Shown in pieces: positions 14,703-39,694 of a stretch of DNA of 64,000 nucleotides (positions within the stretch are counted from its first letter, which is position 1; the number at the start of each line of letters is the position of its first letter). The notes under the pieces were generated by a model. The model did not search any database. It had not been told where the DNA came from and worked only from the letters and a program-made list of their open reading frames with translations. Position numbers and translations under genes: made by a program. The stretch comes from Cellulomonas sp. NS3. Lineage in GTDB: Bacteria > Actinomycetota > Actinomycetes > Actinomycetales > Cellulomonadaceae. The DNA lies in the NCBI RefSeq assembly GCF_024757985.1, contig NZ_CP103289.1, positions 1,426,001 through 1,490,000 on the forward strand. The letters are read 5' to 3'.

Positions 14703-14791
14703 CTCACACGGCCCGCCCGCGGGCTGTGCGCGGAGGTTTCCCTCCGTGTCATCGACGGGCGCGCACGAGCGAAACATCGGCTTCCTAGCGT
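14703..14791 (+). promoter_or_regulatory. narK promoter region with blocks shared with nirB
   Basis: Four blocks occur in order: CTCACACG (14703), GGGCTGTGCG (14721), GAAAC (14771) and TTCCTAGCGT (14782, with the -10 hexamer at 14786-14791). The same blocks at identical spacing precede nirB (39606-39694). CACA (14705) and TGTG (14725) form a dyad two helical turns apart. A shared activator (NnaR and/or GlnR) is inferred. Confidence 0.7.
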
Positions 14792-14849
14792 CAGGGCACA
14801 CGGCCACGGTTCTCCACCGACTCCCGGCCGTCCCCCTCAGGAGGCAGTG

Positions 14850-16253
14850 ATGGCGACACCCACCACCATGACCCCCGCCGGCAGCGTCGCCGGACCCACG
14901 GACACCGAGACCGCCCTCGACCCGGTCCTCGGGACGGCTGCAGGCGCAGCGCACGCGCGTCGCGGCCGCTGGATCGACCAGTGGGACCCCGAGGACACGA
15001 CGTTCTGGGCGAACGGGGGCCGGCGGGTCGCGCAGCGCAACCTCTACGGCTCGATCTTCGCGGAGTTCCTCGGCTTCGCGGTCTGGGCCGTGTGGAGCAT
15101 CGTCGTCCCGCAGCTGCCCGCGGCGGGCTTCGCGTTCACGGTCGACCAGATGTTCTGGCTCATCGCCGTCCCGAGCCTCGTGGGCGCGACGCTGCGCATC
15201 CCGTACACGTTCGCGGTCCCGCTGCTCGGCGGCCGGAACTGGACCATCGTCTCGGCGCTCCTGCTCCTCGCACCGACCGCGGCCATCGCGTGGGCCGTCC
15301 AGCGGCCCGAGACGCCGTTCGGCGTCATGCTCGCGATCGCGGCGCTCGCCGGGGTCGGCGGCGGCAACTTCGCGTCGTCCATGGCGAACATCTCGTTCTT
15401 CTACCCCGCGAAGGAGAAGGGCAAGGCGCTCGGCCTCAACGCGGCGGGCGGCAACATGGGCACGGCGGCCGTGCAGTTCGCGGTGCCGATCGTCATCGCC
15501 ATCGGCGCCGGCATCTCGCTCGAGCGCGCCGGGCTCATGTTCATCCCGTTCATCCTGCTCGCCGCGTTCGTCGCGTGGCGCTTCATGGACAACCTGACGA
15601 TGGCGAAGGCCGACTACAAGGCGTTCGCCGACGCGACCCGCAACCGGCACACGTGGATCATCTCGTTCCTGTACATCGGCACGTTCGGCTCGTTCATCGG
15701 CTATGCGGGTGCGTTCCCGACGCTGCTCAAGGGGCAGTTCCCCGAGGTCACCGTGTCCATCGCGTTCCTCGGCGCCCTCGTCGGCTCGCTCGCCCGGCCG
15801 CTCGGGGGCATCCTCGCGGACCGGCTCGGGGGCGCCCGGGTGACCATCGGGTCCTACGTCGGCATGGGGCTCGGCGCGTTCGGCGCGATCATGGCCCTGC
15901 GTGAGCACGTCTTCGCGCTCTTCCTCGCCTCGTTCCTGCTGCTGTTCGTCTCCACCGGGCTCGGCAACGGCTCGACGTACCGGATGATCCCCGCGGTGTT
16001 CGCGGCCGGGGCCGGCACGGGCGTGAGCCTCGACCGGGCCCGCAAGGCCGCGGCCGGGTGCATCGGCATCGCCGGGGCGATCGGGGCGTTCGGCGGGTTC
16101 CTGATCCCGCGGACGTTCGCCATGTCGACCGCGCAGACCGGCAGCCTCGAGGCTGCGCTGTGGGTCTTCATCGGGGTCTACGCGGTCATGTCGGCCGTCA
16201 CGTGGGCCGTGTACCAGCGCCGCGGCGCGGCGATGGCCGAGGCCCGCATCTGA
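14850..16253 (+). CDS. narK: nitrate/nitrite transporter, NarK-type MFS
   Basis: The 467-residue protein is a 12-helix major facilitator of the NarK/NasA nitrate porter family. It has the WIDQWDPEDTTFWANGGR segment at the N-terminus (about 41-60) found in NarK proteins fed by nitrate clusters. The Gly-rich nitrate signatures are GVGGGNFASSMANISFFYP (about 170-188) and the second-half GLGNGSTYRMIP (about 369-380). It should import nitrate and possibly export nitrite. ATG 14850 has an AGGAGG site 5-6 bases upstream; GTG 14847 is the alternative. The stop overlaps the next start by one base, coupling it to the nitrate reductase. Its promoter shares block structure with that of nirB. Confidence 0.93.
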   Translation: MATPTTMTPAGSVAGPTDTETALDPVLGTAAGAAHARRGRWIDQWDPEDTTFWANGGRRVAQRNLYGSIFAEFLGFAVWAVWSIVVPQLPAAGFAFTVDQMFWLIAVPSLVGATLRIPYTFAVPLLGGRNWTIVSALLLLAPTAAIAWAVQRPETPFGVMLAIAALAGVGGGNFASSMANISFFYPAKEKGKALGLNAAGGNMGTAAVQFAVPIVIAIGAGISLERAGLMFIPFILLAAFVAWRFMDNLTMAKADYKAFADATRNRHTWIISFLYIGTFGSFIGYAGAFPTLLKGQFPEVTVSIAFLGALVGSLARPLGGILADRLGGARVTIGSYVGMGLGAFGAIMALREHVFALFLASFLLLFVSTGLGNGSTYRMIPAVFAAGAGTGVSLDRARKAAAGCIGIAGAIGAFGGFLIPRTFAMSTAQTGSLEAALWVFIGVYAVMSAVTWAVYQRRGAAMAEARI

Positions 16254-39000: not shown

Positions 39001-39549
39001 TCAGTCCCCGCGCGCCGCGAGCAGGTCCCGCAGCGCGAGCACCGTCCGCCAGTTGCGGCCCGTCCCGGCCTGGCGCGCGGCCCTCGTGAGCACGTCGGGC
39101 GCCAGGCGCGAGCGGCCGAGGCCGTCGGGGTAGTGCACGTACGCCTCCCGGCCGGCCCACACGACCCGCTCGTGGCCGTACGCGCTCGGGTCGAACGCCG
39201 GGTCGGGATCGAGGTCCGCGGCGAAGAACGTCACGAGCACGCGCCCGGGGTCCTCCGCCGCGGCGTCGGGGAACGGGTTCGCGGCGACGACGGCGTCGAG
39301 CTCGGCGCGCGTGCGGACGACCACGTCGACGTCGAACCCCAGGTCCTCGCGCAGCGCCGCCGCCAGACCGGCGGCGAGCCGCTCCGGGGTCGCGTCGTCG
39401 GGCGCGACGAGCACGACGTTGCCGCTGTTCAGGTGGGTCTTCACCTGCTCGTGGCCGAGACCCTCCGCGACCGCGCGCAGGCGGGCCATGGGGACCGTGC
39501 GGTGCCCCCCGACGTTGACGCCCCGCAGGAGCGCGACCACGGCTGTCAT
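39001..39549 (-). CDS. DUF1697 family protein
   Basis: The 182-residue protein is a typical DUF1697 member. It begins VALLRGVNVGGHRTVPMARLRAVAEGLGHEQVKTHLNSGNVVL, then PDDATPERLAAGLAAALREDLGFDVDVVVRT, with GRNWRTVLALRDL at the end. The family has no known biochemical activity. It is cytosolic with no membrane segments. CATCCT lies exactly 6 bases before ATG 39549, a leaderless start. It is divergent from nirB, and the shared 183-base interval contains the nirB promoter. Confidence 0.88.
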   Translation of the reverse strand: MTAVVALLRGVNVGGHRTVPMARLRAVAEGLGHEQVKTHLNSGNVVLVAPDDATPERLAAGLAAALREDLGFDVDVVVRTRAELDAVVAANPFPDAAAEDPGRVLVTFFAADLDPDPAFDPSAYGHERVVWAGREAYVHYPDGLGRSRLAPDVLTRAARQAGTGRNWRTVLALRDLLAARGD

Positions 39550-39605
39550 CGGCCCAGGATGCCGTGCCCCCGCGCGGGCGGCACCCTGCGGTCCGGCGCG
39601 GCGAA

Positions 39606-39694
39606 CTCACACGCGACCCGGCCGGGCTGTGCGCAGACCGTTCCCCCGGGGTAACGGGGCGTGCCCTCTGTCGGAAACACGCGGTTCCTAGCGT
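39606..39694 (+). promoter_or_regulatory. nirB promoter region with blocks shared with narK
   Basis: CTCACACG (39606), GGGCTGTGCG (39624), GAAAC (39674) and TTCCTAGCGT (39685, -10 at 39689-39694) occur at the same spacing as before narK. CACA-N16-TGTG forms a dyad. AC-N9-AC (39605-39617) resembles GlnR half-site spacing. Joint control of narK and nirB by NnaR and/or GlnR is inferred. Confidence 0.7.

What the first reader, a model, noticed from the sequence alone, without database searches (positions are those of the whole stretch)
14703..39694. narK and nirB promoters share an 89-bp, exactly spaced block architecture
CTCACACG, GGGCTGTGCG, GAAAC and TTCCTAGCGT occur at 14703/14721/14771/14782 before narK and at 39606/39624/39674/39685 before nirB. 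The offsets (18, 50 and 11 bases) are identical although the DNA between blocks differs. Both contain CACA-N16-TGTG, a dyad two helical turns long. This looks like a common activator array reaching a shared -10. It is a ready-made definition of the local nitrate regulon operator, perhaps an NnaR site next to a GlnR-like site.
Basis: partly seen in the sequence, partly recalled or inferred. Interest (0 to 1): 0.75.

Follow-up and report, generated by a model that had tools for sequence, protein, structure and literature searches.

The report
NnaR–GlnR nitrate promoters in Cellulomonas
The matching DNA blocks in front of two nitrate-use genes look like landing sites for two known bacterial regulators, NnaR and GlnR, set at fixed distances from the gene start signal; this is a well-conserved example of a switch already described in Streptomyces and mycobacteria.

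Summary

CTCACA-N16-TGTGCG fits the published NnaR motif, reported beside GlnR boxes at similar spacing. GTTCC-n6-GTAAC and GAAAC fit GlnR half-sites a1, b1, b2; TAGCGT is a likely -10. nnaR lies in the window downstream of nirBD, and a GlnR-like gene elsewhere in the genome.

In related genomes a scan finds the composite at 83 of 88 nirB and 62 of 70 narK promoters. Without imposing spacing, the dyad-to-GlnR gap is 6 bp in 83 of 85 nirB and 52 of 69 narK promoters with a dyad. b2 and the -10 are 15 bases apart in 134 of 145, shifting together by 1 bp.

Side observation: the dyad lies 7 bp before a different palindrome at 4 of 39 paralogous nirB promoters. Binding is not shown. Verdict: new member of a known kind.

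The parts
14703..14730 (+). NnaR dyad CTCACA-N16-TGTGCG, narK promoter (centre about -81.5 from the predicted start)
   Evidence: sequence; published motif; conserved in relatives
14737..14752 (+). GlnR a1-b1 position (TTTCC-n6-GTCAT), degenerate in this promoter
   Evidence: register with nirB and relatives; same-genus L065 reads GTCAC at b1
14771..14775 (+). GlnR b2 half-site GAAAC
   Evidence: 15 nt (start to start) before -10 in 134 of 145 promoters
14786..14791 (+). -10 element TAGCGT; predicted transcription start A at 14798
   Evidence: TAnnnT conserved; start is inferred
14847..16253 (+). narK, NarK-family nitrate/nitrite transporter (start GTG 14847 or ATG 14850)
   Evidence: best NCBIfam hits below their curated cut-offs
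16058..18553 (+). ORF with NasC-like assimilatory nitrate reductase (match begins at residue 83, so the true start is probably after narK)
   Evidence: Pfam over cut-off; NF047855 E 5.1e-204 but below its cut-off
18571..20028 (+). NirB-N-terminal-like flavoprotein match, 37% identity, possibly a NasB-type reductase
   Evidence: G000:C1:1444571-1446028; function inferred
39606..39633 (+). NnaR dyad CTCACA-N16-TGTGCG, nirB promoter
39640..39655 (+). GlnR a1-b1 (GTTCC-n6-GTAAC)
   Evidence: published consensus; conserved
39674..39678 (+). GlnR b2 half-site GAAAC
39689..39694 (+). -10 element TAGCGT; predicted transcription start A at 39701
   Evidence: start is inferred
39733..42447 (+). nirB, nitrite reductase large subunit
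   Evidence: TIGR02374 over cut-off
42444..42860 (+). nirD, nitrite reductase small subunit
   Evidence: TIGR02378 over cut-off; Rieske_2
42860..44188 (+). siroheme-synthase-like ORF (NAD_binding_7 + tetrapyrrole methylase); exact start not determined
44200..45303 (+). nnaR: HemD (HEM4) fused to OmpR-type Trans_reg_C domain; exact start not determined
   Evidence: NF005568 over cut-off; Pfam

Best explanation
Both regions are activator-dependent promoters of the nitrate/nitrite assimilation regulon in a Cellulomonas close to C. cellasea. NnaR binds the dyad CTCACA-N16-TGTGCG centred near -81. GlnR binds half-sites a1, b1 and b2 immediately downstream (about -61 to -23), where by eye there is no good -35 hexamer. 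Together they bring RNA polymerase to the TAnnnT -10, so that narK with the nitrate reductase genes, and nirBD with siroheme synthase and nnaR, are switched on under nitrogen limitation when nitrate or nitrite is used. nnaR lies downstream of nirBD on the same strand and, if co-transcribed, would reinforce its own synthesis. Shown here: the sites, their geometry and conservation, and the genes. Inferred from work on Streptomyces and mycobacteria: which protein binds which block, cooperativity and conditions. The near-constant 6-bp dyad-GlnR gap and the fixed b2 to -10 distance suggest, but do not prove, rigid protein contacts.
For: The dyad fits the NnaR motif reported next to GlnR motifs with similar spacing. 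NnaR is reported to bind the nirB promoter cooperatively with GlnR in S. coelicolor (review passage). nnaR is in the window. A GlnR-like protein is encoded (L254): best PDB match 8hih_O, E 3.6e-85 over nearly its whole length (that record is named only 'Transcriptional regulatory protein'; that it is GlnR is recalled); 4o1h, named GlnR, matches the receiver part at 7.9e-27. Composite by automated scan in 83 of 88 nirB1 and 62 of 70 narK promoters. With spacing not imposed, 85 of 88 nirB and 69 of 70 narK regions have a dyad against 12 of 160 Markov-resampled controls, and a1-b1 lies 6 bp after it in 83 of 85 and 52 of 69. A pattern scan of whole genomes (up to 2 mismatches) matches 84 of 121 family genomes, with 1 match in all for the backward pattern. 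72 of 80 named nnaR loci carry a composite against 1 site in the reversed sequences (many of these are the same genomes). b2 to -10 is 15 in 134 of 145: 81 at +67/+82, 53 at +68/+83. The divergent narK/nirB pairs L281 and L301 carry two back-to-back composites, not one shared dyad.
Against: No binding or expression data for this organism. In the window's narK a1-b1 is weak (TTTCC/GTCAT; 3 mismatches to the composite), and 14 of 69 narK promoters with a dyad have only a weak a1-b1, with 3 more placing it elsewhere. b2 in the window is 23, not the canonical 22, bases after b1, and a2 is not recognisable. 8 of 80 named nnaR loci have no composite by the scan (some of these stretches are short). 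GlnR and MtrA motifs are alike (PMC6277429 passage), so MtrA at the same boxes is not excluded; the GlnR-like protein also matches MtrA 2gwr at E 1.4e-26. Absence of the composite in genomes without nnaR is not independent evidence, because those genomes mostly lack the target genes too.
Confidence: 0.92

Rival explanations
1. The downstream half-sites (GTTnC-n6-GnAAC, GAAAC) are mainly bound by another OmpR-family regulator with a near-identical motif, such as MtrA or PhoP, acting as repressor or competitor, rather than by GlnR.
For: A MtrA-like regulator seems to be encoded (L257, named from recall of its sequence only). PMC6277429 notes near-identical GlnR and MtrA motifs and MtrA binding at nirB in mycobacteria (passage).
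Against: Position just upstream of a -10 with no good -35 by eye favours an activator. The a1-b1-b2 pattern with dispensable a2 is a published GlnR arrangement.
Confidence: 0.12
2. The dyad is bound by a different regulator (for example a CRP/FNR-type protein) and only resembles the NnaR motif.
For: CACA/TGTG half-sites are generic dyad letters; no binding data here.
Against: Letters and N16 spacing fit the NnaR motif quoted from two earlier studies. A composite is found at 72 of 80 named nnaR loci. CRP-type sites have the half-sites the other way round with a 6-bp gap (recalled).
Confidence: 0.04
3. The shared blocks are a recent duplication of one promoter fragment, alike by descent rather than by function.
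For: 61 of 97 identical positions.
Against: The same blocks persist while spacers diverge across the 18 genera tabulated and in genera that belong to other families by recalled taxonomy. The 1-bp phase of the -10 differs between nirB and narK of one genome in 22 of 55 genomes with both (a 23rd has an odd call).
Confidence: 0.02

Closest known systems
NnaR-regulated promoters of Mycobacterium smegmatis (Antczak 2018, PMC6277429; passages seen)
   Same: ctCACm-N16-kGTGag dyad near a GlnR motif, similar spacing, including the nirB (msmeg_0427) and nitrite extrusion (msmeg_0433) genes; transcription start downstream of the GlnR motif
   Different: there the transcripts have leaderless features and trHbN is a target; here predicted leaders are about 32 nt (nirB) and about 50 nt (narK), and the only perfect dyads in the genome are at narK and nirB
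NnaR/GlnR targets narK, nirB, nirA, nasA of Streptomyces coelicolor (Amin 2012, not seen; known through passages of PMC11162112 and PMC10704036)
   Same: motif CTCAC[A/C][Cg]-13..16-GTGAG[CG][GA]; cooperative NnaR and GlnR binding reported at nirB
   Different: right half-site reads TGTGCG here instead of GTGAG; exact spacing in S. coelicolor not seen by me
GlnR promoters with a dispensable a2 site (A. mediterranei nas operon, through PMC10704036; S. coelicolor amtB, PMC5826061; passages seen)
   Same: a1, b1 and b2 conserved, a2 degenerate
   Different: b1 to b2 is 23 here (22 in other relatives); amtB has an extra a3-b3 box

Membership tests
NnaR-box promoter | ctCACm-N16-kGTGag palindrome | tested here: met
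   CTCACA-N16-TGTGCG at both promoters; the right half has C where the motif has A, as in 94% of 62 narK promoters
NnaR-box promoter | GlnR box alongside at near-constant spacing | tested here: met
   6-bp gap in 83 of 85 nirB and 52 of 69 narK promoters with a dyad
NnaR-box promoter | NnaR (HemD-OmpR fusion) encoded | tested here: met
   window 44200-45303, NF005568 and Pfam HEM4 + Trans_reg_C
NnaR-box promoter | NnaR binds and activates | not testable with these tools
   needs gel shift and mutant
GlnR box | gTnAC-n6-GaAAC (a1-b1) at nirB | tested here: met
   GTTCC-n6-GTAAC; relatives GTTnC/GnAAC; consensus
GlnR box | same a1-b1 in the window's narK promoter | tested here: inconclusive
   TTTCC-n6-GTCAT is degenerate; 3 mismatches to the composite pattern
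GlnR box | second box a2-b2 at 11-bp steps | tested here: not met
   b2 GAAAC present but 23 (not 22) after b1 in the window, a2 not recognisable; 81 of the 134 promoters with fixed b2 to -10 have the canonical 22. a2 is published as non-essential
GlnR box | GlnR encoded | tested here: met
   L254 protein, 8hih_O E 3.6e-85 (name GlnR recalled), 4o1h named GlnR E 7.9e-27
OsdR/DevR box (nirB2 side observation) | palindrome like AGGGCCGATCGGCCCT | tested here: inconclusive
   of 39 nirB2 promoters, 2 score 12 and 1 scores 11 of 12; controls reach 11 in 6 of 195 and never 12; the window genome's own scores 10, within the control range

The most novel reading that the evidence does not exclude
NnaR's dyad is a movable module docked at a fixed distance to more than one partner activator: 6 bp from GlnR a1 at nirB and narK, and 7 bp from an unrelated GGGTCCAAnGGCCC-like palindrome (perhaps a hypoxia-type OsdR/DevR box) at a paralogous nirB2, so that nitrate control is added to either nitrogen or oxygen control by rigid contact.
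Probability: 0.2. Interest if true: 0.5.

Novelty: new member of a known kind. Interest (0 to 1): 0.22.

Why it matters
It extends the NnaR/GlnR operator, known from Streptomyces and mycobacteria, to Cellulomonas and relatives, with 145 scored promoters that describe its geometry: dyad - 6 bp - a1 - 11 - b1 - 22 or 23 - b2 - 15 - TAnnnT (start to start after a1). The natural 1-bp shift, which moves b2 and the -10 together, gives a ready set of spacing variants for testing how NnaR, GlnR and RNA polymerase touch each other. The basic switch itself is not new.

Tried and rejected
Considered and rejected: GAAAC as a -35 hexamer, since its end lies 10 bp before the -10 hexamer, too close. A single shared dyad serving divergent narK/nirB: L281 and L301 show two back-to-back composites, 11 and 2 bp apart. 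Co-occurrence of nnaR and the composite across 121 genomes was not used as evidence, because genomes without nnaR mostly lack the target genes as well. The first own-genome scan (up to 3 mismatches) gave 1286 matches against 1126 for the backward pattern, too loose to use, and its capped listing did not show the two perfect sites; replaced. The phylum scan matched 17 of 396 genomes at up to 2 mismatches; the pattern was tuned to this family and some matches look like chance, so it is not a count of true occurrence. The OsdR/DevR label for the nirB2 palindrome is weak.

Rows left out before counts. narK upstream regions: 70 of the 88 long hits listed (18 not fetched). nirB1: 88 of 89 loci listed (G026, in pieces, not fetched). 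Two nirB2 paralogs (L146, L147) are among the 90 nirB rows, and among the 7 nirB rows under threshold. The other 5 are L095 (none seen), L127, L130 and L151 (composite too near the end of the stretch fetched, seen by eye) and L141 (N15 dyad). Of the 8 narK rows under threshold L067 (N15) and L165 (N17) are spacing variants, L168, L170 and L179 have a changed right half (by eye), L066, L178 and L186 show no composite. One narK row counted as good (L182) is a false hit by eye. In one search, 9 of the 11 exceptions to the 15-base distance (8 with a GAAAA tract, and L136 with GTCAT at +67) read as 15 by eye; L182 and L189 do not. In one search, 3 of the 79 sites (L295, L296, L336, minus strand) are the same palindrome read from the other strand. 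L253 (fetched) was not used in any count. In one search at least 7 listed matches lie away from nirB/narK (G006, G046, G076, G077, G089, G097, G110).

Full report
Observation. The blocks are exactly where stated, with identical offsets. The two regions share 61 of 97 ungapped positions, 7 standard deviations above the mean of all placements in the window and 12 positions above the next best. In the genome (G000, one contig of 4,776,279 bases) the paired blocks occur only here.

Genes. Downstream of the first region lie narK, a NasC-like nitrate reductase and a NirB-N-terminal-like flavoprotein; downstream of the second lie nirB, nirD, a siroheme-synthase-like ORF and nnaR, a HemD domain fused to an OmpR-type DNA-binding domain. 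A scan for the OmpR-type DNA-binding domain gave 19 matches in the genome. One of the encoded proteins (L254) departs from the usual receiver signature by eye. Its best PDB match is 8hih_O (E 3.6e-85; named only 'Transcriptional regulatory protein', GlnR by recall); 4o1h, named GlnR, matches its receiver part (7.9e-27), and MtrA 2gwr matches more weakly than 8hih_O (1.4e-26). The closest named relative of the NnaR protein is from Cellulomonas cellasea (98%; records of the window's own genome may be left out there).

Identity of the blocks. [quoted passage not shown] The GlnR consensus gTnAc-n6-GaAAc-n6-GtnAC-n6-GAAAc, the finding that a2 is not required in the A. mediterranei nas operon, and cooperative NnaR/GlnR binding at nirB come from the review PMC10704036 (passages); a2 is also dispensable at amtB (PMC5826061, passages). 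In nirB, a1 = GTTCC, b1 = GTAAC, b2 = GAAAC; in narK, a1 = TTTCC and b1 = GTCAT are weak, and b2 = GAAAC.

Comparative test. I collected upstream regions for 88 of 89 nirB1 loci and 70 of 88 long narK hits listed for 121 family genomes. By automated score the composite is present in 83 of 88 nirB1 and 62 of 70 narK regions (its 90 nirB rows include 2 paralogs that lack it). Because that scan imposes the spacing, I repeated it with the dyad found first and the GlnR pair sought anywhere within 60 bases. A dyad (score 10 or more of 12) is found in 85 of 88 and 69 of 70 regions, against 12 of 160 Markov-resampled controls. The best GlnR pair begins 6 bases after it in 83 of 85 nirB and 52 of 69 narK regions; of the rest, 1 nirB and 14 narK regions have only a weak pair, and 1 nirB and 3 narK regions have it elsewhere. 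A whole-genome pattern scan (up to 2 mismatches) matches 84 of 121 family genomes, with one match in all for the backward pattern; at least 7 of its listed matches are not at nirB/narK. In 80 named nnaR loci, which overlap these genomes but include Knoellia, Janibacter, Pedococcus, Tessaracoccus, Ruania, Occultella and Georgenia, 72 carry a composite (79 sites, 3 of them the same palindrome read from the other strand), against 1 site in the reversed sequences.

Geometry. b2 and the TAnnnT -10 are 15 bases apart (start to start) in 134 of 145 promoters: 81 with b2 at +67 and -10 at +82 from the dyad start, 53 with both one base further. Both phases occur in several genera, and nirB and narK of one genome often differ: pairs (nirB, narK) 82/82 21, 82/83 18, 83/83 11, 83/82 4, 82/80 1, of 55 genomes. 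So the extra base lies between b1 and b2, and b2 keeps its place relative to the polymerase site. The window's two promoters are both of the longer type. This fits b2-bound GlnR touching the polymerase, with some play between the two GlnR pairs; that step is inference.

Extent in the genome. The composite with up to 3 mismatches finds nirB (0), narK (3) and one site at 1010763 (3), probably chance. The dyad alone with up to 1 mismatch gives 25 matches, strands counted apart, against 8 for the backward pattern; one place is upstream of a second nirB (G000:C1:2231565).

Side observation. That paralogous nirB2 promoter has the dyad 7 bases before GGGTCGAAGGGCCC and no GlnR pair. Among 39 nirB2 promoters fetched, a dyad (score 10-12) with the same 7-base gap occurs in 4 (L214, L215, L220, L221). 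A pattern scan of 121 family genomes (up to 3 mismatches) found 3 of these sites (L214, L215, L221) plus one 3-mismatch site elsewhere (G004), against 2 matches for the backward pattern. L214 and L215 are from near relatives (NirB 98% identical), so there are about three lineages. The palindrome resembles the OsdR consensus of PMC5069765 (passages), but by score most nirB2 promoters are within the control range.

Verdict. Ordinary but well supported: a conserved instance of the NnaR/GlnR switch, with useful geometric detail. A search for NnaR, GlnR and Cellulomonas (any two) gave 28 papers; none of the 20 listed contains the word Cellulomonas. A search on NnaR/GlnR spacing and promoter architecture gave 2 papers, of which I saw passages of PMC6277429 and only the listing of PMC3662644. 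Subscription papers are mostly not held, so this is no proof of absence.

Noticed in passing
G000:C1:2231565-2231612 (in L214, upstream of nirB2 at 2231699): NnaR-like dyad 7 bp before a GGGTCGAAGGGCCC palindrome and no GlnR pair, at a paralogous nirB; same pairing in 4 of 39 nirB2 promoters.
   Followed up: partly
L281 (2403/2415) and L301 (4752/4755): Divergent narK/nirB pairs carry two complete composites back to back, 11 and 2 bp apart, instead of sharing one palindrome.
   Followed up: partly
L168, L170, L179 (narK upstream, genus g21): The narK dyad has a changed right half (GTGAGAG or CTGAGAG) and the GlnR pair reads CTCAT-n6-TTCAC, apparently a lineage-specific variant.
   Followed up: no
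L201, L202, L204-L207, L209, L210, L212: An unnamed genus (g33, genomes of 6-10 Mb) shows a variant right half, CTCACA-N16-GCTGAG, before a GTTCC-n6-G[AT]AAC pair at the same spacing.
   Followed up: no
G097:C3:67186, G006:C2:183033, G110:C10:46554, G077:C11:245870: In genus g7 similar CTCACAGG..-N-..TTGTGA palindromes with a GlnR-like pair recur away from nirB/narK in pairs of genomes, possibly further targets.
   Followed up: no
window 36676-37716: A MerR-type DNA-binding domain fused to HEAT repeats, next to another HEAT-repeat protein at 35763-36689.
   Followed up: no
window 23672-25395: moeA-like and moaC-like molybdenum cofactor genes lie about 5 kb downstream of the nitrate reductase.
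   Followed up: no
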